Source of the DNA: Leisingera sp. ANG-Vp
GTDB lineage: Bacteria; Pseudomonadota; Alphaproteobacteria; Rhodobacterales; Rhodobacteraceae
Assembly (NCBI RefSeq): GCF_000813725.1
Contig: NZ_JWLD01000068.1
Location: 1 to 40,956 of the forward strand
Reading direction: 5' to 3'
Length of the DNA stretch: 40,956 nt
The notes under the pieces were generated by a model that searched no databases, was not told the DNA's origin, and was given only the letters and a program-made list of their open reading frames with translations. This document shows positions 30,152 to 40,956 of this stretch, piece after piece; the first letter of the stretch is position 1, and each line of letters opens with the position of its first letter. A program made the position numbers and the translations under genes.

Positions 30152-31906
30152 TCATGCCTGGGGAACACCTGCCCGCCGCAGGCCGTCCAGAAAGCCTTGA
30201 TGCCGAGCGTGGGTAGCTGGCGGCATGCTGTCGATCACGCGTTTGATGGTGAGCCCCGGGTAAGCAAGCATGAGCGCTTCCACGGCTTCGTCGGCCTCCG
30301 TTTGAAGGCCCGCATTAGCGCAAAAACTAGCAAGATCACGATAGGCCCAAGTGACACCGGGACCAGCTGTCAGACCGGACTTCACAAAGTGAATTGCTTT
30401 GCCAAACTCACCAGCGAGCCCCATTGCGTATCCCCTGCCAAACTGGATGTTGAACAGGAACGGGTCCCGGGGGCTGAGTTCTTCCGCCCGGTCGAATGCA
30501 GCGAGACCAGCTTCAACTTCCTCCCGGTAGATATGGTTCCACCCCAGCCGCATCCAGCCCCAGGCAGAGTTTGGGTCAAGATAAAGCGCCCTTTCCAGCA
30601 TCTGAGCGGCACGCTCATGCTCCAGCCCGGTCATACCCAACGCAGCTGCAATTGCGACAAGGGACGGGGCATGGTCATCAGCCGAGAGTGCTGCCGCTTC
30701 GGCGTCTCTCTGGGCGCTTTGGCGCGAAAGCAGAGGTGTCTCGCTCCACATATACGTGGCTTGCTGTGCATAGGCCCAGGCCCTCAAGGCTTGCGCCCGG
30801 ATGTTTTCTCCGCCTTGCTCCATTGCTGACGTCAGCAATTCAATTGCGCGCTCGTTTTCCTGCCGCCGGTGCTTCCAAAAATGCGGAAAGGCGCTCATGT
30901 AGAGCTCATAGGCATGCCGGTCCAAGGGGGCGACAGCGCGTGCGGCAGCAATTTCGGACGCCCGGATGGACGGGGAAATAGCCCCGGCAACATGTGAGGC
31001 AATCCGGTCCTGCAGGTCGAAGAGATCTTCGAGATTATCGTCATAGCGCTGCGCCCAAAGGTTCGCGCCAGTGAGCGCCGAGGCAAGCTGCACCGAAATT
31101 CTAACCCTGGAGCCCGCACGCCGGATAGCGCCTGTCACAACATAGCGGGCCCCAAGATCCCGGCCGACCTTGCGGATCTCCACGACCCGGCCTTTGTACG
31201 TGAAGGCTGACTGCCGCGCGATGACGGAAATGTCGCTGACGCTGGACAAAGCCGAAGTGATCTCGTCCACCACACCATCCGCAAAATACTCATCTGCAAC
31301 GCCGATATCATCGAAGGGCAGGACCACTACGGCTGGCAGTGCCTCGGGCTTTTGCGCTGCTACTGCTGTTCCCGCGCCAAACACCCAAGCATCCACCGGA
31401 TCTGGAAGGTTCTTGACCGGTACTTTGCCGATAGATTTGAGCGGGACATCAATCCGGCCCTTCACCTGTTCCCGTGCGGTTCGCGACAGGCAAATGCCGC
31501 CTGCAGGTGCAATTGACTCCAGGCGTGAGGCAACATTGACAGCATCGCCATAGATATCCTGGCCCAAAACAACCACATCCCCCAAATGCACGCCAATCCT
31601 AAAGCACAGCCGTTCCTGCTCTTCGCGTTCGGGTTCCCGGTTGCCCATGGCCTTCTGTATGGACAGCGCACAGCGCATTGCCTCGACAGGCGACTGGAAC
31701 TCGGCCAGGAAGCCATCGCCCATCGTTTTGACAACCCGCCCGCTGTTTTGACGGACCTGCGGTCTCACGACTTCACTCCAAACCGCTTGCAGCCGGGCTA
31801 TCACGCCCTCCTCATCGGCAGCTACCAGCCTTGAATAAGCCACCAGGTCCGCAGCGATTATGGTTGTCAGCTTTCTGATCGCAATGCCCCCGCTTTCCCG
31901 CTGCAC
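30152..31906 (-). CDS. Class III adenylate/guanylate cyclase with TolB-like and TPR domains
   Basis: This is a 584-residue signalling protein. An N-terminal class III cyclase catalytic domain (about residues 8-170) contains the metal-binding Asp20 (IIAADLVAYSRL) and Asp64 (MGDGF), and the transition-state residues Asn124 and Arg128 (DAVNVASRLE), so it is probably active. Next is a FlgO/TolB-N-like domain (AVVVLPFDDIG, then YFADGVVDEITSALS, about 190-310). The C-terminal half is TPR-like helices (for example AAQMLERALYLDPNSAWGWMRLGW). There are no membrane segments. This architecture is common in rhizobia and Rhodobacterales. The start is a GTG at 31906 next to an upstream stop; the ribosome binding site is poor. 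The input signal is unknown. Confidence 0.93.
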   Translation of the reverse strand: MQRESGGIAIRKLTTIIAADLVAYSRLVAADEEGVIARLQAVWSEVVRPQVRQNSGRVVKTMGDGFLAEFQSPVEAMRCALSIQKAMGNREPEREEQERLCFRIGVHLGDVVVLGQDIYGDAVNVASRLESIAPAGGICLSRTAREQVKGRIDVPLKSIGKVPVKNLPDPVDAWVFGAGTAVAAQKPEALPAVVVLPFDDIGVADEYFADGVVDEITSALSSVSDISVIARQSAFTYKGRVVEIRKVGRDLGARYVVTGAIRRAGSRVRISVQLASALTGANLWAQRYDDNLEDLFDLQDRIASHVAGAISPSIRASEIAAARAVAPLDRHAYELYMSAFPHFWKHRRQENERAIELLTSAMEQGGENIRAQALRAWAYAQQATYMWSETPLLSRQSAQRDAEAAALSADDHAPSLVAIAAALGMTGLEHERAAQMLERALYLDPNSAWGWMRLGWNHIYREEVEAGLAAFDRAEELSPRDPFLFNIQFGRGYAMGLAGEFGKAIHFVKSGLTAGPGVTWAYRDLASFCANAGLQTEADEAVEALMLAYPGLTIKRVIDSMPPATHARHQGFLDGLRRAGVPQA

Positions 31907-34925: not shown

Positions 34926-34943
34926 GGGCGGGTTCAGCCGCCC
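34926..34943 (-). terminator. Terminator hairpin overlapping the last codons of the racemase-family gene
   Basis: GGGCGG (34926-34931) pairs with CCGCCC (34938-34943) around GTTCAG, and on the minus strand is followed by TTTT. The gene's stop codon lies within the structure, so the operon's transcript would end right at translation stop. Confidence 0.5.
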
Positions 34944-35950
34944 CAGGTGTCAGACAATGTAAAGCCCTGCGGAAACGGGTCGGAGGGATCAAGGCCGATC
35001 TGGCTGATGCCATAAACCCAGCACTGGCCTGAGACGCGGTTCCGCGTTGCGGTGAAGGGGCCGCTGCGGGTTTCGCCGAGGAATTCGGTTGCGAATTCGC
35101 CGCCGATGATGGAGCGGGTCAGCATCCGCGCGCCGGGTTGCACCAGCCCCCGGGCGTGGCGCGCGGCCATGTTGGCGTTGGAGCCGGTGCCGCAGGGAGA
35201 ACGGTCGGCGCGGCCCGGGCGCAGGGTGGTGCAGGTGCGGATGGCACCGTCCGGCTCGGCGCTGCGGAACATCACATAGGCTAGGCCGTTGAGTGCCGGG
35301 GTGGTTGGATGCAGCACTTCGGTGCGTTCGGCGATCAGGTTGCGCAGTGCAACGCCGGTCATCGCCAGCTTGCGGGCGTTTTCCGGCGTGATGGAGAGTC
35401 CCAGCTGGTCCGCATCCACCAGCGCATAGAACACGCCGCCGAAGCAGAGGTCGTAGGTGAGACGGCCCCACTCCGGGGTGTTGATCACCGCGTCCTTGGC
35501 CGCCACGAAGGCGGGCGGCATGTCGAGAGTGACGCGGGTGACTTTGCCGTCCTGGCAGGCGGCTGTGGCGCGGACCAGGCCTGCGGCGGTGTCGAGGACC
35601 ACTTCGGTTTCCGGTTCCTGCATGGGTTTCATGCCGGTCTCCAGGATCGCGGTCACTGCGCACATGGCGTTGGAGCCGGACATGGCGTGGGCCTGGTCCG
35701 GCTGCAGCACGATGAAGCCGGTGTCGGCCTCGGGCGGGGTGGCAGGGGGCAGCAGCACGACGGAGCCTGCGGGTCCCGAGCGCGGTTCGGAGCACAAGAG
35801 GCGGCGGAGGCTGTCGTCCTGTGTGTTCAGGTAGTCCAGCTTGTCCGCCATCGTGGTGCCGGGGATGCCGAGGAGGCCGCCGGTCACGACGCGGCCGATT
35901 TCACCGGCGCAATGCACGTCGACGGTTTGCAGGGTGCGGGTCCAGCGCAT
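34934..35950 (-). CDS. Proline-racemase-superfamily enzyme (hydroxyproline epimerase/dehydratase type, Ser/Cys active site)
   Basis: The 338-residue product has the superfamily fold and motifs: VDVHCAGEIGRVV near the N-terminus, then HAMSGSNAMCAV where proline racemases and 4-hydroxyproline epimerases have MCGHG, and SPCGTGSNAN. The acid/base pair is therefore Ser91 and Cys253 instead of Cys/Cys. In this superfamily Cys/Cys enzymes are racemases or epimerases and Cys/Thr enzymes are trans-3-hydroxyproline dehydratases; Ser/Cys members form a less-studied group. The gene is the last of a six-gene minus-strand operon with DapA, DadA and aldehyde-dehydrogenase genes, which points to hydroxyproline or a related imino acid. 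AGGAG precedes the start at 35950. Epimerase versus dehydratase activity is open. Confidence 0.93.
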   Translation of the reverse strand: MRWTRTLQTVDVHCAGEIGRVVTGGLLGIPGTTMADKLDYLNTQDDSLRRLLCSEPRSGPAGSVVLLPPATPPEADTGFIVLQPDQAHAMSGSNAMCAVTAILETGMKPMQEPETEVVLDTAAGLVRATAACQDGKVTRVTLDMPPAFVAAKDAVINTPEWGRLTYDLCFGGVFYALVDADQLGLSITPENARKLAMTGVALRNLIAERTEVLHPTTPALNGLAYVMFRSAEPDGAIRTCTTLRPGRADRSPCGTGSNANMAARHARGLVQPGARMLTRSIIGGEFATEFLGETRSGPFTATRNRVSGQCWVYGISQIGLDPSDPFPQGFTLSDTWGG

Positions 35951-35962
35951 GGGGATCTCCTG

Positions 35963-36718
35963 TCAGGCGACGGCTTGGGCGCCGGTGATTTCAACAGTGG
36001 CTCCGCAAAGATACCCTGCCTCGTCCGAGGCGAGGAAGGCGATCAGGGCGGCGATCTCCTCAGGCTCGCCGATGCGGCCATAGGGCACCAGCGCGTTGAG
36101 GTCTGCAAGGCTGCGGCCGGAGCGGGCGAGGTTGCTTTCCAGCATTGGGGTACGGACTTCTCCCGGCGCCACGGCGTTCACGCGGATCTTGTCCGGGGCA
36201 TAGTCGCGGGCGAGGTTTTCTGTGAAGGCCACGACAGCGGCCTTGGTGGTGTTATAGGCGATGTGGCCCGGCGCCGGGTGCCGCCCCCATTGCGAAGCGG
36301 TGTTGACGATGGCGCCGCCGCCCTGGGCCTGCATCACCGGGATCACCGCCTGGCACATGTGGAAAAGCGCGTCGATGTTGACCTGGAAGGAGAGGCTCCA
36401 GTCCTCGGCGCTGAGCTCCATCAGCGCCCCGCGGCGCATCAGGCCTGCGTTGTTGCACAAGACGTCGATGCCGTGGCCTTTGGAGGTGAGGCCGGAGACA
36501 AAGCTGCGGATGGCGTGCGGGTCGGTCAGGTCGACGGCGCTGCAGTCTGCCATGCCGCCCTCTGTGCGGATTGCGGCGGCCAGGTCCTCGGCGGCTCCGG
36601 CGTTGGTGTCTACGATCCAGACAAGGGCGCCCTCGGCGGCGAGGCGGCGGCAGATCGCGGCACCGATGCCGCCGGCGCCGCCAGTGACAATTGCTGTTTT
36701 GTTTTCGAACCGGTTCAT
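35963..36718 (-). CDS. Short-chain dehydrogenase/reductase, NAD-type (SDR 1)
   Basis: This is a 251-residue classical SDR: TGGAGGIG cofactor motif (residues 12-19), NNAG (about 89-92), and catalytic Ser142, Tyr155 and Lys159 (YNTTK). The residue ending the second strand is Asp37 (IVD), which favours NAD(H). It is 12 bp upstream of the racemase-family gene and 4 bp after the second SDR gene, so it is co-transcribed. Neither SDR belongs to the standard 4-hydroxyproline pathway; oxidation of a hydroxyl on a hydroxyproline derivative or on a sugar acid would fit the fold. The substrate is unknown. Confidence 0.93.
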   Translation of the reverse strand: MNRFENKTAIVTGGAGGIGAAICRRLAAEGALVWIVDTNAGAAEDLAAAIRTEGGMADCSAVDLTDPHAIRSFVSGLTSKGHGIDVLCNNAGLMRRGALMELSAEDWSLSFQVNIDALFHMCQAVIPVMQAQGGGAIVNTASQWGRHPAPGHIAYNTTKAAVVAFTENLARDYAPDKIRVNAVAPGEVRTPMLESNLARSGRSLADLNALVPYGRIGEPEEIAALIAFLASDEAGYLCGATVEITGAQAVA

Positions 36719-36722
36719 GCGG

Positions 36723-37493
36723 CTACCTCATCTGGCTGGCGCCGTTCACGTCAAGAACGGCTCCGGAAAGGGACGATTGCGACGGGCGCAGGACAAAGGC
36801 GGTGAGCTCGGCGATCTCGGAGGGTTCGGCCATGCGGCCGATGGGAATGCCCGACAGAGCCGCTGCTTCTCCATGTTCTGCGATGTAGGCCTCGGACATT
36901 TTGGTGCGGACCCAGCCCGGGGCCAGGGCGGTGGCGGTGATGTTGTCGGACCCGAAGCCGCCCGCGATGCTTTGTGTCAGGTTGATCAGCGCCGCCTTGG
37001 TGGCGCCATAGGACATCGCCTCGGGCCTATAGCCGCCCTGCGCGGCGCGGGAGGCCATGTTGACGATCCTGCCGCCGCCGTGGGCGCGGAAATGGGGGAT
37101 AGCGGCACGGCAGAGGTCGGCAGCGGCGAGCAGGTTCACCTGCACATCGCGGGCCCAAGTGTCCTGCCATTGCTCCAGCGGGTCATCCACCGAAGAGGGC
37201 GACAGGATGCCCGCGTTGTTGATCAGCGCGTGGATGCGGCCTGCTGCGGTTTCCGCCTCTGCCCAGAGCTGGGAAGGAGCGGCGGGGTCGCTTAGATCAG
37301 CCGCGAAGCAAAGCGCTCCGTTGCCGATCTCCTCTGCCAAAGCCTCAGCGGCTTTGCGGTTGCGGCCATAGTGCAGCAGTACCCGGCCCCCCTCGCGGGC
37401 GAGCTCCCGGGCGATGGCAGCGCCGATGGTGCCGGTGGCGCCGGTCAGCAGCACGGTTTGCCCTGTAAGCGTTTGACCTGTCAGATGCGCCAT
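36723..37493 (-). CDS. Short-chain dehydrogenase/reductase, probably NADP-type (SDR 2)
   Basis: This is a 256-residue classical SDR: TGATGTIG (about residues 17-24), NNAG (92-95), catalytic Ser148, Tyr162 and Lys166 (YGATK). After the second strand the sequence is HYGRNRKAA, with basic residues instead of Asp, which favours NADP(H). The N-terminus contains a direct duplication of LTGQT. The stop codon is 4 bp before SDR 1 and the start lies 3 bp after the aldehyde-dehydrogenase stop. Together with SDR 1 it could invert a hydroxyl stereocentre through a keto intermediate; this is inference. Confidence 0.92.
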   Translation of the reverse strand: MAHLTGQTLTGQTVLLTGATGTIGAAIARELAREGGRVLLHYGRNRKAAEALAEEIGNGALCFAADLSDPAAPSQLWAEAETAAGRIHALINNAGILSPSSVDDPLEQWQDTWARDVQVNLLAAADLCRAAIPHFRAHGGGRIVNMASRAAQGGYRPEAMSYGATKAALINLTQSIAGGFGSDNITATALAPGWVRTKMSEAYIAEHGEAAALSGIPIGRMAEPSEIAELTAFVLRPSQSSLSGAVLDVNGASQMR

Positions 37494-37496
37494 GGC

Positions 37497-38975
37497 TCAG
37501 CCTTTCAGATACCAGCCCCAGGGTTTGGAGCGGTCGTAGGTGGTGATCTGCTTGGTCTCCAGATAGTTGTTCAGCCCCCACTCGCCCAGCTCGCGGCCAA
37601 TGCCGGACTGTTTGTAGCCGCCCCAGGGCGCTTCGGTGAAGGTGGGCTGCGAGCAGTTGACCCAGACGATCCCGGCCCGGAAGGCGCGGGCAACGCGGTT
37701 GGCGCGCTCCAGGTCATTCGACATGACGGCTGCGCCGAGGCCAAAGCGGGAGTCATTGGCGAGCGCGACGGCTTCCTCTTCGGTCTTGAAGGGGCGGATG
37801 CAGACGACGGGGCCAAAGATCTCCTCATTCCAGATCCAAGCGTTGGTGGGGACGTCGGCAAAAATCGTGGGTTCGACATAGCAGCCGTGCTCCAAACCGG
37901 CAGGCACGCCGCCGCCGCAGACCAGGCGGGCGCCTTCGGACTTGCCGCGGGCGATGGCGGCGAGCACCTTGTCGTGCTGGCCTTGGCTGACAAGGGGCCC
38001 GAGCAGCACGCCGTCCTCCAGCCCGTGGCCGATTTTGATTTTTTGCGCCTCTTCCGCGAGGCGCGCCAGCAGCGGTTCATAGAGGCTCTCTTCGATCAGC
38101 ACGCGGGAGGTGGCGGAGCAGACCTCGCCCTGGTTCCAGAAGATGCCGAACATGATCCATTCGGCAGCTTCGTCGATATCCGCGTCGCCAAAAACCACCA
38201 TCGGGGATTTGCCGCCAAGCTCCAGGCTGACGGTTTTGATCTCCTGCGCGGCGGTGGCCATGATGCGGGCGCCGGTGGGGACCGAGCCGGTGAAGGCGAG
38301 CTTGTCGACGCCCGGATGCTCGGTGAGCGGCTGCCCGGCCTCTGGGCCGAAACCGGTGACGATGTTGAGGACACCCGCGGGCAGGCCTGCGGCGGTGGCG
38401 ATGCTGCCCAGCTCCAAAGCGGTGAGCGGGGTGAGCTCCGAGGGCTTCAGCACCATGGTACAGCCCGCAGCGAGGGCCGGGGCGACCTTCCAGGAGGCCA
38501 TCAGCATCGGGAAGTTCCAGGGGATGATGGCGCCCGCCACGCCGACCGGTTCCTTCACCGCCTTTGAGGTGAACTCCGCCATCGGCAGCTCGATGTCTTG
38601 TTCGCTGCGGTTGTCCAGCCGTTCGGCCAGATCGGCGTAGAAGTGGAAGCAGCCCGCGGTGTCCTCGATGTCCCAGACGGCCTCGGGCAGGGGTTTGCCG
38701 TTGTCGCGGACTTCCAGACGCGCCAGCTCGTCGGTGCGGCGGGTGATCTCATCCCCCATCCTGCGCAGGATGGCGGCGCGCTCGGCTCCGGTCATGCGGG
38801 GCCAGGGGCCGGTGTCAAAGGCGGCGCGGGCGGCCTGAACGGCGGCGCCGATGTCTGCGGCATTGCCGCGGGCCACCTGGTGGAATGTCTCACGGTTCGA
38901 AGGGTCCACCACATCGAACAGGGCGCCGGATGCGGAGGCGGTCCATTCGCCGTTGATGAAGAGCTTGTTTTGCAT
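37497..38975 (-). CDS. Aldehyde dehydrogenase with ALDH10-like (betaine/amino-aldehyde) C-terminus
   Basis: This is a 492-residue NAD(P)-dependent aldehyde dehydrogenase: IPWNFPM cofactor loop (about residues 161-167), FTGSVPTG, general base Glu252 (LELGGKSP) and catalytic Cys286 (NQGEVCSATSR). The neighbourhood suggests oxidation of 2-oxoglutarate semialdehyde to 2-oxoglutarate, the last step of hydroxyproline catabolism. However, CSATSR and the C-terminal SGIGRELGEWGLNNYLETKQ with the final PWGWY resemble betaine- and amino-aldehyde dehydrogenases (ALDH10 group), so the true substrate may carry a positive charge. The start at 38975 has GGAGAAAAGAC upstream; the longer frame to 39101 overlaps the upstream gene. 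Confidence 0.94.
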   Translation of the reverse strand: MQNKLFINGEWTASASGALFDVVDPSNRETFHQVARGNAADIGAAVQAARAAFDTGPWPRMTGAERAAILRRMGDEITRRTDELARLEVRDNGKPLPEAVWDIEDTAGCFHFYADLAERLDNRSEQDIELPMAEFTSKAVKEPVGVAGAIIPWNFPMLMASWKVAPALAAGCTMVLKPSELTPLTALELGSIATAAGLPAGVLNIVTGFGPEAGQPLTEHPGVDKLAFTGSVPTGARIMATAAQEIKTVSLELGGKSPMVVFGDADIDEAAEWIMFGIFWNQGEVCSATSRVLIEESLYEPLLARLAEEAQKIKIGHGLEDGVLLGPLVSQGQHDKVLAAIARGKSEGARLVCGGGVPAGLEHGCYVEPTIFADVPTNAWIWNEEIFGPVVCIRPFKTEEEAVALANDSRFGLGAAVMSNDLERANRVARAFRAGIVWVNCSQPTFTEAPWGGYKQSGIGRELGEWGLNNYLETKQITTYDRSKPWGWYLKG

Positions 38976-39012
38976 GTCTTTTCTCCGGTGCCGGGCGGTG
39001 CCCGGCAAATGA

Positions 39013-40251
39013 TTAGAAACGATCGGCCCTGTAGGCGTGCATGTCGATGTTGGGCTGCCGTCCGGCAGCGAGGCTGCGCACGAGCTTGCCGGTGGTGGCA
39101 CAGAGAGTGAGGCCGAGCTGGCCGTGGCCGGTGGCCAGGATCACGTTGGCAGCACCCGGGGCCGGGCCGATGATGGGTTTGGTGTCAGGCGTCAGAGGGC
39201 GGCGGCCGATGCGGCGCTGGGCGGGTTCGGTGCGCAGGCCGGGCAGAACGCGCTTGGCCTTCTCCACCAGGATTTCGGCGCGCTTCCAGTTCGGCTCGGC
39301 GTCAAGGCCGGCAAATTCGATGCTGCCTGCGACGGCCAGCCCGCTTTCATAAGGCGTGATGCCAAAGCCGCCCTTGGCGTAGACCATGGCGTGGGTGACA
39401 TCGACGCCCGGGGCCGTGAGGCTGGTCTGGTAGCCGATGACGCCTTCCATCTGGATCGAAACGCCCAGATCGCGGGCCAGATTTTTGGACCAGGCGCCGG
39501 CTGCCAGGACGTATTGGTCGCCAGTGATGGTCTCGCCGCTTTCGGTCCGCACACCTGCAGCGCCGCTGCCGTTTTGCAGGAAACCGGTGGCGCGCGCGTG
39601 TTTCACCGTGCCGCCGCGTTCGGTGAAAACACGGTGCAGCTCGGTCACGAACCGTTTGGTGTCCACCACTGAGCGCCAGTCGCGGAACACGGTGGCGCAG
39701 GAGAAATCACCGGCGATGGAGGGTTCCATTTCTTTGGCGTCCTGCCCGCTGATCTCGTCGATCTGGAAGCCGAGCGCGCGGCGCATGTCATGGAAGCCGC
39801 GCTCATGCGCCAGTTCTTCTGGGCTGTCGTAAAGCTCCATCACCGGCGTGCTGCGCAGCAGGCCGGACAGGCCGTAGCGTGCCAGCATGGCCTGCAGATC
39901 GGCCAGCGAGGGAAGGGTGAGGGCAGAGATGTCCTCGCTGATGGCTTTGATCCGGCTGGCCCGGGCGTTGGCGGCAAAGCGCAGGAACCAGGGCAGTACC
40001 CCCAGCGCGGATGAGGCGCGCAGGGTCAACGGCCCCAGCGGGTCCAGCAGCCAGCCCGGCGCCTTCATCATGATGCCGGGCTTGGAGAGCGGGATCACTT
40101 CGCTGACGGCGATGGATCCGCAGGAGGCCCAGCTGGCGCCCTCGCCGATGGGGCCGGGTTCCAGCACGGTGACCTGATGGCCGTCATCCTGCAGCTCCAG
40201 CGCGCAAGCGATACCGACAACGCCGCCGCCGATGACCACGATATGGCTCAT
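39013..40251 (-). CDS. FAD-dependent D-amino-acid dehydrogenase-type oxidoreductase (DadA-like)
   Basis: This is a 412-residue DAO-family flavoprotein. The N-terminal Rossmann dinucleotide-binding motif is VVIGGGVVGIACALELQDDG, followed by VTVLE, then GASWASCGSIAVSEVIPLSKPG typical of DadA-like enzymes, and near the C-terminus RRPLTPDTKPIIGPAPG and ATGHGQLGLTL, the second FAD-contact region. In the hydroxyproline pathway such an enzyme oxidises cis-4-hydroxy-D-proline to pyrroline-4-hydroxy-2-carboxylate, passing electrons to the membrane. It is cotranscribed with the aldehyde dehydrogenase (37 bp gap). AGGA lies upstream of the start at 40251. The exact substrate is inferred from context. 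Confidence 0.92.
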   Translation of the reverse strand: MSHIVVIGGGVVGIACALELQDDGHQVTVLEPGPIGEGASWASCGSIAVSEVIPLSKPGIMMKAPGWLLDPLGPLTLRASSALGVLPWFLRFAANARASRIKAISEDISALTLPSLADLQAMLARYGLSGLLRSTPVMELYDSPEELAHERGFHDMRRALGFQIDEISGQDAKEMEPSIAGDFSCATVFRDWRSVVDTKRFVTELHRVFTERGGTVKHARATGFLQNGSGAAGVRTESGETITGDQYVLAAGAWSKNLARDLGVSIQMEGVIGYQTSLTAPGVDVTHAMVYAKGGFGITPYESGLAVAGSIEFAGLDAEPNWKRAEILVEKAKRVLPGLRTEPAQRRIGRRPLTPDTKPIIGPAPGAANVILATGHGQLGLTLCATTGKLVRSLAAGRQPNIDMHAYRADRF

Positions 40252-40315
40252 GTCTGTCTTGTCCTAAAAAGCCCGGAAACGGCGCATCTGCGCCGCCTCC
40301 GGTCAGGGAGAGAGG

Positions 40316-40956
40316 TTACCAGTTCAGGATCGGTTCCATCGCGGTGCGGAACTCGGCCTTTTCCTGATCCGTGAGCGGGCCCAGCGGCGCGCGGCATTCA
40401 CCGACGGGCAGGCCCTGCAGCTCGCAGCCGTATTTGATCTTCTGCACGAACTTGCCGGATTCCAGGATGTTCATGGCGCGGTAGAGAGTCTTCATCATCT
40501 CTTTCGCCTTATCCAGATCGCCCGCCTTGTAGGTGCGGTCCAGGTCGCAGCAGGCCTTGGCCATGCAGTTGGACGGGCCGCAGATCCAGCTGTCCGCACC
40601 CCAGAACATGAAGTCCAGCGCAATGTCGTCAGAGCCGGAGACCAGCTGGATCTTGCCCTCGTAGCGCGAGGCGATGTCGATCGCGCGCTGCAGCACGCCG
40701 GAGCTTTCCTTGATGCCGATGACACGTGGGTTATCGGCGAAATGGTCCATCAGTTCGAAGCTGATGTCGTTGCCGTCCTTCAGCGGGTAGGAGTAGAGCA
40801 CCAGGTTCACGTCGACCTCGGCCAGCACGGTCTCATAGTGCTTGATCAGTTCTTCCTGGGTCGGGCGGGTGTAGAAGGGCGGCGCCAGCAGCACATTGTC
40901 ATAGCCGATGTCCTTGGCCATGGCGGTCTGCTCGATCACTTCGCGTGTGGCGGGGG
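40316..40956 (-). CDS. DapA-family lyase/deaminase (partial, N-terminus off the right edge)
   Basis: This is a dihydrodipicolinate-synthase-superfamily TIM-barrel enzyme; the last ~213 residues are visible and translation continues past the edge. The Schiff-base lysine is in VIGIKESSG, and the triad tyrosine region is LYSYPLKDG, where DHDPS has YNxP. LVSGSDD and GADSWICGPSNCMAK follow, as in the family. In the hydroxyproline pathway a DapA homologue deaminates and dehydrates pyrroline-4-hydroxy-2-carboxylate to 2-oxoglutarate semialdehyde; that role is likely here from context. Other family roles such as 5-dehydro-4-deoxyglucarate dehydratase are not excluded. It is the most upstream visible gene of the operon; regulator and transporter may lie to the right. 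Confidence 0.9.
   Translation of the reverse strand, partial: PATREVIEQTAMAKDIGYDNVLLAPPFYTRPTQEELIKHYETVLAEVDVNLVLYSYPLKDGNDISFELMDHFADNPRVIGIKESSGVLQRAIDIASRYEGKIQLVSGSDDIALDFMFWGADSWICGPSNCMAKACCDLDRTYKAGDLDKAKEMMKTLYRAMNILESGKFVQKIKYGCELQGLPVGECRAPLGPLTDQEKAEFRTAMEPILNW

What the first reader, a model, noticed from the sequence alone, without database searches (positions are those of the whole stretch)
34934..40956. Hydroxyproline-type catabolic operon with non-standard enzymes
Six minus-strand genes are packed with gaps of 3-65 bp: DapA-family, DadA-family, aldehyde dehydrogenase, SDR, SDR, proline-racemase superfamily. Four of these classes match the epimerase, D-hydroxyproline dehydrogenase, deaminase and semialdehyde dehydrogenase of 4-hydroxyproline degradation. 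The two SDRs and the altered active sites are not part of that scheme. The operon may degrade a relative such as a different hydroxyproline isomer, a hydroxyproline betaine or another imino acid.
Basis: partly seen in the sequence, partly recalled or inferred. Interest (0 to 1): 0.75.

Follow-up and report, generated by a model that had tools for sequence, protein, structure and literature searches.

The report
Hydroxyproline-type operon with unusual sulfatase
A Leisingera bacterium carries a second, divergent set of genes for breaking down a hydroxyproline-like amino acid, and the complete set in its relatives also holds an importer and an unusual sulfate-removing enzyme, which suggests that the real food molecule may be a sulfate-tagged form of such an amino acid.

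Summary
In detail: six minus-strand genes (PRS, SDRa, SDRb, ALDH, DadA, DapA) sit 3-64 bp apart; the DapA 5' end is lost in a run of N. The genus is Leisingera. The epimerase's altered active site is a known one: PRS is 55% identical to 4LB0, whose Ser93/Cys255 match a published 4-hydroxyproline epimerase. The genome also holds another hydroxyproline cluster, so this is a second, divergent set.

The operon is bigger than the window. In relatives it reads SBP-permease-permease-ATPase-sulfatase-DapA-DadA-ALDH-SDRb-SDRa-PRS; the genome's own sulfatase lies past the N run, its transporter at the edge of another contig. The sulfatase is of the choline-sulfatase family but in a separate clade (18 sequences, support 0.998): catalytic residues kept, Glu386 (essential for choline sulfate) replaced by Gly, choline clamp lost. 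In sulfatase-anchored searches 10 of 12 clade members lie within 7 kb of a PRS gene. SDRb occurs in 9 of 295 family genomes, each time beside SDRa and a PRS gene.

Best reading: import and desulfation of an O-sulfated hydroxy-imino acid (hydroxyproline or hydroxypipecolate type), then the epimerase-deaminase route; the SDRs may invert the ring hydroxyl. No substrate was tested, and most related loci lack the sulfatase.

The parts
34934..35950 (-). PRS: proline racemase superfamily protein, Ser/Cys hydroxyproline 2-epimerase type (motif SGSN ... DRSPCGTG)
   Evidence: Pfam PF05544 352 bits; 55% identity to 4LB0 over 339 columns; same SxxN and Cys positions in the alignment
35963..36718 (-). SDRa: short-chain dehydrogenase, canonical Ser-Tyr-Lys, Asp after the second strand (NAD-type, inferred)
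   Evidence: Pfam; Asp in 23 of 23 aligned orthologues
36723..37493 (-). SDRb: short-chain dehydrogenase, canonical Ser-Tyr-Lys, no acidic residue at the NAD-type position (NADP-type, inferred)
   Evidence: Pfam; Tyr, Phe or Cys there in 22 of 22 aligned orthologues; beside SDRa and a PRS gene in 9 of 9 family genomes that have it at E <= 1e-70
37497..38975 (-). ALDH: aldehyde dehydrogenase, closest solved relatives are aminoaldehyde/betaine-aldehyde dehydrogenases; proposed semialdehyde dehydrogenase
   Evidence: Pfam Aldedh; PDB search, 3iwj 635 bits; start codon
39013..40251 (-). DadA-family FAD oxidoreductase, proposed D-hydroxy-imino-acid dehydrogenase
   Evidence: Pfam DAO 184 bits; NCBIfam DadA subfamily 189 bits, below its cut-off of 383
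40316..40956 (-). DapA-family protein (DHDPS superfamily), 5' part lost in a run of N; proposed hydroxy-imino-acid deaminase
   Evidence: Pfam DHDPS 154 bits; 98% identical to the complete gene in L036 (L045 row); N run

Best explanation
The six genes are the enzymatic tail of an operon that takes up and degrades an O-sulfated cyclic hydroxy-imino acid (a 4-hydroxyproline or 4-hydroxypipecolate type compound). Proposed order: the amino-acid ABC transporter brings the sulfate ester in; a cytoplasmic formylglycine sulfatase removes the sulfate; PRS epimerises the alpha carbon (L to D); the DadA-type flavoenzyme oxidises the D form to the cyclic imine; the DapA-type Schiff-base enzyme dehydrates and deaminates it to an alpha-keto semialdehyde; ALDH oxidises this to alpha-ketoglutarate (or 2-oxoadipate). 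SDRa (NAD-type) and SDRb (NADP-type) are proposed to work as an oxidise-then-reduce pair that inverts the ring hydroxyl through a ring ketone, so that another stereoisomer can enter the route. Shown here: gene content, conservation, co-occurrence, active-site residues. Inferred: every substrate, the sulfate on it, the location of the sulfatase and the SDR reaction.
For: PRS is 55% identical to 4LB0, whose Ser93, Asn96 and Cys255 fit the published Ser/Cys 4HypE. PRS with DAAO, DHDPS and ALDH is the published neighbourhood of 4HypE. The sulfatase lies between the transporter ATPase and DapA in complete operons (with an aminotransferase between). In sulfatase-anchored searches 10 of 12 members of its clade are within 7 kb of a PRS gene: 3 of 3, 0 of 2 new ones, 7 of 7 (details). 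Members reach Rhizobiaceae (55-57%) and Rhodospirillales-type MAGs (L092, L093; 67-69%). 17 of 17 clade members checked keep the eight catalytic residues, but 18 of 18 have Gly at Glu386, where 36 of 36 other family members aligned (32 distinct) keep Glu; Glu386 is needed for choline-O-sulfate and hardly matters for aryl sulfate. One distant member sits by aconitase X genes of the cis-3-hydroxyproline dehydratase type. The own genome keeps a choline-sulfatase relative with Glu386 and the full hairpin elsewhere (L149) and another hydroxyproline cluster (L041).
Against: No biochemistry, growth or expression data. No paper with the names tried for sulfated hydroxyproline or hydroxypipecolate was found in the held library. 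The sulfatase is absent from 40 of 53 PRS+DapA loci, and this is mostly a real absence: 37 of the 40 show at least 2 kb upstream of DapA. Transporter orthologues occur without the sulfatase (L039, L077, L091, L111, L113), so the transporter may carry the free acid. ALDH is closer to aminoaldehyde dehydrogenases than to any alpha-ketoglutarate semialdehyde model. Two distant clade members have no PRS gene in 15-20 kb read, and the aconitase X genes beside one of them are on the opposite strand. Neither SDR keeps the Arg of the known cis-4-hydroxyproline dehydrogenases. The four Rhizobium records look like close kin and are not independent. An Arg near the pocket is seen in sequence only.
Confidence: 0.42

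Rival explanations
1. A plain trans-4-hydroxy-L-proline operon. The sulfatase and the SDRs are accessory genes for unrelated sulfate scavenging and redox balance, and the free imino acid is the only substrate.
For: The core enzymes match the published 4HypE neighbourhood; 40 of 53 PRS+DapA loci have no sulfatase, 37 of them with at least 2 kb read upstream of DapA; the transporter occurs without it.
Against: The genome already has a hydroxyproline cluster at C75 with a cis-3-hydroxyproline dehydratase over its curated cut-off. The sulfatase clade keeps to these neighbourhoods (10 of 12) and has changed its substrate pocket.
Confidence: 0.33
2. A choline-O-sulfate or betaine operon: the sulfatase frees choline and the betaine-aldehyde-type ALDH finishes its oxidation, with the hydroxyproline-like genes alongside by chance.
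For: The sulfatase passes the choline-sulfatase model (TIGR03417 581 bits, cut-off 433); the ALDH scores best with betaine-aldehyde dehydrogenase (543 bits, but cut-off 669); ANG-M1 has two Rieske ORFs distantly like glycine betaine monooxygenase some kb away.
Against: Glu386 and the WWYHN choline hairpin are gone in all 18 clade members; no choline dehydrogenase was recognised in the operon; the ALDH stays with PRS and DapA where the sulfatase is absent; the transporter resembles polar amino-acid transporters, below the curated cut-offs.
Confidence: 0.05
3. A hydroxypipecolate (six-ring) rather than hydroxyproline operon, with or without sulfate: the same enzymes act on the ring larger by one carbon and give 2-oxoadipate. 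Sulfated 4-hydroxypipecolic acid is a legume seed compound as I recall it.
For: The chemistry of each step carries over; three of the four Rhizobium records with the sulfatase come from Calliandra, Leucaena and Gliricidia; ALDH is of an aminoaldehyde/betaine-aldehyde type and not a known ketoglutarate semialdehyde type.
Against: The plant compound is recalled and no search confirmed it; the characterised PRS proteins act on prolines and hydroxyprolines; many carriers belong to the Roseobacter group, not to plant bacteria.
Confidence: 0.15

Closest known systems
Bacterial L-hydroxyproline (Lhp) gene cluster, trans-4-hydroxy-L-proline branch, with a Ser/Cys 4HypE of PRS cluster 9 (Avi_0518/B9JQV3; PDB 4LB0 by my assignment)
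   Same: PRS epimerase with SxxN and Cys, FAD D-amino-acid dehydrogenase, DHDPS-family deaminase, ALDH, amino-acid ABC transporter, GntR regulator
   Different: A conserved SDR pair (and in some relatives a third SDR), a dedicated sulfatase, an aminoaldehyde-type ALDH, and in some relatives class III or class IV aminotransferases
Choline-O-sulfatase BetC of Sinorhizobium meliloti (6FNY, 6G5Z, 7PTH)
   Same: Family and length, formylglycine motif CxPxR, metal and catalytic residues, Trp129
   Different: Glu386 is Gly in motif EHxDGGxxAPR with a new Arg; hairpin WWYHN replaced by xGVSx; sits in a hydroxyproline-type operon
Rhizobium etli CIAT 652 plasmid pC proline racemase cluster (RHECIAT_PC0000652-0639)
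   Same: DapA 88%, DadA2 63%, ALDH 66%, PRS 55%, SDRb 59%, SDRa 64% (against ANG-M1 or Salipiger references) in one run
   Different: Different ABC transporter, two further PRS genes and a malate dehydrogenase-type gene, no sulfatase in the 17 kb read
BDH2 / L-KDFDH short-chain dehydrogenases (cis-4-hydroxy-L-proline / 4-oxo-L-proline)
   Same: SDR superfamily; known case of an SDR working on the ring hydroxyl of hydroxyproline
   Different: SDRa and SDRb lack the Arg at the Arg148 position; BDH2 (2AG5) is not among the 60 best PDB matches of either

Membership tests
trans-4-hydroxyproline (Lhp) gene cluster | PRS protein of 4-hydroxyproline epimerase type with its catalytic pair | tested here: met
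   55% to 4LB0; Ser (SxxN) and Cys (DRSPCGTG) aligned. Met in sequence only: activity not tested, and all 6 NCBIfam PRS models that matched score below their cut-offs
trans-4-hydroxyproline (Lhp) gene cluster | D-hydroxyproline dehydrogenase (FAD, DAO superfamily) | tested here: inconclusive
   DAO family yes; DadA subfamily model below cut-off; nearest structures are glycine oxidases at 86 bits or less
trans-4-hydroxyproline (Lhp) gene cluster | Hydroxy-pyrroline-carboxylate deaminase of the DHDPS superfamily with Schiff-base Lys | tested here: inconclusive
   Tyr and Lys of the DHDPS active site conserved in the alignment of the complete ANG-M1 protein (which residues they are is recalled); the superfamily has many functions
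trans-4-hydroxyproline (Lhp) gene cluster | Alpha-ketoglutarate semialdehyde dehydrogenase | tested here: inconclusive
   ALDH superfamily yes; model NF042993 369 bits, cut-off 770; nearest structures aminoaldehyde dehydrogenases
trans-4-hydroxyproline (Lhp) gene cluster | Growth on and induction by trans-4-hydroxy-L-proline | not testable with these tools
   needs culture
choline-sulfatase (the operon's sulfatase) | Score over the TIGR03417 equivalog cut-off | tested here: met
   ANG-M1 protein, 581 bits against 433
choline-sulfatase (the operon's sulfatase) | Glu386, fully conserved in choline sulfatases and needed for choline-O-sulfate | tested here: not met
   Gly in 18 of 18 clade members; Glu in 36 of 36 others aligned, 32 distinct
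choline-sulfatase (the operon's sulfatase) | Trp129/His145 clamp on the quaternary ammonium | tested here: not met
   Trp129 kept in 17 of 17, His145 and the WWYHN hairpin lost in all of them. Several other family members with Glu386 also lack the hairpin, so this feature alone does not mark the clade
BDH2 / L-KDFDH type SDR | Arg three residues before the catalytic Tyr (Arg148) | tested here: not met
   His in 23 of 23 SDRa; Ala in 20 and Ser in 2 of 22 SDRb (numbering)
class I (formylglycine) sulfatase | CxPxR motif plus metal and catalytic residues | tested here: met
   Asp14, Cys54, Asn75, His104, His201, Asp296, His297, Lys309 kept in 17 of 17 clade members

The most novel reading that the evidence does not exclude
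The operon family is an undescribed catabolic route for O-sulfated cyclic hydroxy-imino acids, with a new sulfatase specificity (an imino-acid O-sulfatase split off from choline sulfatases by losing Glu386 and the choline hairpin and gaining an Arg that could hold the carboxylate) and a paired NAD/NADP short-chain dehydrogenase stereo-inversion step at the ring hydroxyl.
Probability: 0.33. Interest if true: 0.75.

Novelty: new variant of a known kind. Interest (0 to 1): 0.55.

Why it matters
If right, it points to a natural pool of sulfate-esterified hydroxy-imino acids large enough to have selected a dedicated importer, sulfatase and degradation route that occurs in Rhodobacterales, Rhodospirillales-type MAGs and Rhizobiaceae, partly on plasmids. 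It would also show that some genes named betC (choline-sulfatase) by annotation (Mameliella, Sulfitobacter and Shinella) do something else, and it gives a one-residue test (Glu386) to tell them apart.

Tried and rejected
Considered and set aside: (1) sugar-acid operon (KDG-type DapA): the truncated DapA protein scores poorly with KdgD (61 bits, cut-off 374) and a PRS gene does not fit. (2) Hydroxyproline betaine: no demethylase recognised among the operon genes; the Rieske ORFs near the ANG-M1 operon were found in no other locus of the set searched, so they are not part of the conserved set. (3) RSP3519 of Rhodobacter sphaeroides as the genetic proof for this PRS: its printed primer codes for MRVQDVYN, unlike the window's MRWTRTLQ, so I took it as not an orthologue (judged from the primer only). 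(4) SDRs as BDH2 orthologues. (5) ORF clustering was spoiled by shadow ORFs of high-GC DNA; replaced by a GC3-weighted caller and reference tblastn. In one search the cluster named DAPA also takes in the sulfatase, because an ORF runs through the N stretch of L045. (7) Structure prediction was not used: the tool gives no coordinates with which to measure the new Arg against the active site.

Corrected on checking: I first took many loci to be too short to show the sulfatase; one search shows that only 3 of the 40 are, so I lowered the best explanation from 0.45 to 0.42 and the novel case from 0.35 to 0.33, and raised the plain-hydroxyproline rival from 0.30 to 0.33.

Limits of counts: hits below per-family identity limits were dropped. 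Clade membership by residue 386 was read for 54 aligned sequences only. The weaker matches that were not fetched as loci (its list is itself capped) were not aligned. Of the 172 plasmid records, six (H1-H4, H7 and two others, H8 and H10, making seven) were aligned; H5 and H6 were placed by identity and position; the rest were not examined. The 36 with Glu include S. meliloti SmCS and four sequences present twice (L119/L158, L122/L159, L128/L160, L120/L161).
Full report
What is in the window. Six minus-strand genes fill 34934-40956: PRS, SDRa, SDRb, ALDH, a DadA-family flavoenzyme and a DapA-family gene, with gaps of 12, 4, 3, 37 and 64 bp. The window is part of contig C109 (108,350 bp) of a 5.15 Mb genome in 143 contigs. 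It stops where a run of 276 N begins, inside DapA. The nearest named relative is Leisingera sp. ANG-M1 (PRS 94%), held as a genome of the same genus, so the genus is Leisingera.

The operon is larger. In ANG-M1 (L036) the order is SBP, permease, permease, ATPase, sulfatase, DapA, DadA, ALDH, SDRb, SDRa, PRS on one strand, with a GntR gene on the other strand upstream. In the window's own genome a sulfatase piece lies right behind the N run (C109:41231-42526, 97% over residues 1-432 of 514), followed by a second run of 80 N and then other genes. The transporter and GntR genes (97-99%) lie at the very start of contig C64. So the operon is present but split between two contigs; the scaffold join behind the sulfatase is doubtful.

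The epimerase. PRS is 55% identical to 4LB0. The listing names 4LB0 only 'uncharacterized protein', but its Ser93, Asn96 and Cys255 are the numbers that PMC4113996 gives for its Ser/Cys 4-hydroxyproline epimerase (Ser 93 and Cys 255 in the text; the figure legend names Avi_0518 and writes Cys 236). The second structure, 4Q2H, scores slightly higher and is not assigned. I read the Results of that paper and passages found by search. In that paper members of this cluster also act on 3-hydroxyproline. Its main text does not contain the words sulfatase, SDR or short-chain.

A second set in one genome. The genome holds five PRS genes. [quoted passage not shown]). Its DapA is 36% and its ALDH 39% identical to the ANG-M1 copies. 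The window's operon is thus an additional, divergent set, which favours a related but different substrate.

The sulfatase. It belongs to the choline-sulfatase family (581 bits; nearest structure S. meliloti SmCS). Passages read in PMC5870055 and PMC9063841 say that Glu386 is fully conserved in choline sulfatases and matters for choline-O-sulfate but not for aryl sulfate, and that Trp129 and His145 clamp the ammonium group (PMC9063841 mostly writes Asp386 for this residue and doubts that it touches the ammonium). In one search all 17 operon-type sequences keep eight catalytic residues and Trp129 and have lost His145 and its hairpin; with an eighteenth (L164) all have Gly at 386, in the motif EHxDGGxxAPR. 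All 36 other sequences (32 distinct) keep Glu, though several of them also lack the hairpin. The 18 form one clade (FastTree support 0.998). The start MTKPNI shows no signal peptide by eye.

Association, counted from the sulfatase side. One search (385 genomes of the class, E <= 1e-160) gave two new members at 53%, neither with PRS nearby. One of them (L156) is divergent from a class IV aminotransferase and faces, on the opposite strand, an aconitase X pair (Pfam AcnX 439 bits; NCBIfam cis-3-hydroxyproline dehydratase 397 bits, below its cut-off of 700; the function of that family is from passages of PMC5144071). The other (L157) is by a class III aminotransferase-like gene. One search (plasmids; 172 records, 20 listed) gave seven at 55% or more (H1-H7): Mameliella alba, Sulfitobacter and Shinella carry the operon, Rhizobium NXC24 and CB3090 carry transporter-sulfatase-PRS, and CB3060 and CB3171 were judged only from coordinates 157 bp apart. 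Together 10 of 12 lie within 7 kb of a PRS gene (for the distances). The four Rhizobium records look like close kin. Eight other family members with about 8-9 kb or more read on each side (L148, L149, L158-L161, L162, L163) show no PRS.

Counted from the PRS side, in 79 loci: 53 have PRS and DapA; of these 13 have the sulfatase, 24 SDRa, 23 SDRb, 22 ALDH, 43 one type of DadA and 5 the type of the window, 35 GntR. Of the 40 without the sulfatase 37 show at least 2 kb upstream of DapA, so its absence there is real: the sulfatase is an addition to a more widespread core. A class IV aminotransferase occurs in 5 of the 79 loci, all with the sulfatase.

The SDR pair. In 295 family genomes an SDRb orthologue (E <= 1e-70) occurs in 9. 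In all 9 it lies beside SDRa and a PRS gene: six with a PRS of the window's type and three with a PRS 56% identical to the ANG-M1 one (G049 and G229 by L147 and L146). The pair also occurs in Rhizobium etli pC. Of 25 loci with either gene, 22 have both. SDRa has Asp after the second strand in 23 of 23, as NAD-type SDRs do; SDRb has Tyr, Phe or Cys there in 22 of 22. An NAD enzyme paired with an NADP enzyme fits oxidation followed by reduction of one hydroxyl. That SDRs can work on the 4-hydroxyl of hydroxyproline is known for BDH2 and L-KDFDH (passages of PMC8914325 and PMC11199699), but the window's SDRs lack the Arg that those enzymes use for the carboxylate, so this stays an idea.

Mechanism. 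Import, desulfation, epimerisation, oxidation, deamination and aldehyde oxidation, in the order given in Best explanation. The core steps follow from the published trans-4-hydroxyproline pathway; the desulfation step and the nature of the acid are inferred. The ALDH is nearest to aminoaldehyde dehydrogenases, plant ones by my recall of the entries, which leaves room for a larger ring such as hydroxypipecolate. Sulfated 4-hydroxypipecolic acid in legume seeds is recalled from memory, and no paper in the held library has the terms tried; the same holds for sulfated hydroxyproline. Searches found no paper that joins hydroxyproline with the sulfatase or SDR terms given there.

Verdict. The most informative feature, the sulfatase, lies outside the window.

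Noticed in passing
L156:8445-12707: A distant member of the sulfatase clade is divergent from a class IV aminotransferase and faces, on the opposite strand, separate aconitase X large and swivel subunits (cis-3-hydroxyproline dehydratase type).
   Followed up: partly
L077:5318-6019 and 17 orthologues: A third SDR (SDRc) between DadA and ALDH in many relatives has the Tyr but not the Lys of YxxxK (Val in 17, Ala in 1 of 18), so it may not be an ordinary dehydrogenase. It was not seen in the window or in ANG-M1.
   Followed up: partly
window 40956 / C109:40957-41232 and C109:42661-42740: Two N runs flank the sulfatase piece; behind the second one come, by eye, nitrile-hydratase-like genes, secG and pyrG, while the missing transporter sits at the start of contig C64. 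The scaffold join looks wrong or the operon is interrupted.
   Followed up: partly
L036:845-2756: Two Rieske-type ORFs, distantly like glycine betaine monooxygenase, lie beyond the ANG-M1 operon on the other strand; not found in the other loci searched.
   Followed up: partly
L165 (Rhizobium etli CIAT 652 plasmid pC): Three PRS genes in one cluster together with DapA, DadA, ALDH, the SDR pair and a malate dehydrogenase-type gene.
   Followed up: no
L052, L067, L092, L093, L152: In the 79-locus table a class IV aminotransferase is found only in loci that also carry the sulfatase; its role in the route is unexplained.
   Followed up: no
L155 and L164: Rhizobium records combine transporter, sulfatase and PRS with hydantoinase-like genes (by eye), an enolase-like gene and an ornithine cyclodeaminase family gene, without DapA or ALDH matches in the stretch read.
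   Followed up: no
window 30152-31906: Looks like a class III nucleotide cyclase with a C-terminal repeat region (by eye only).
   Followed up: no
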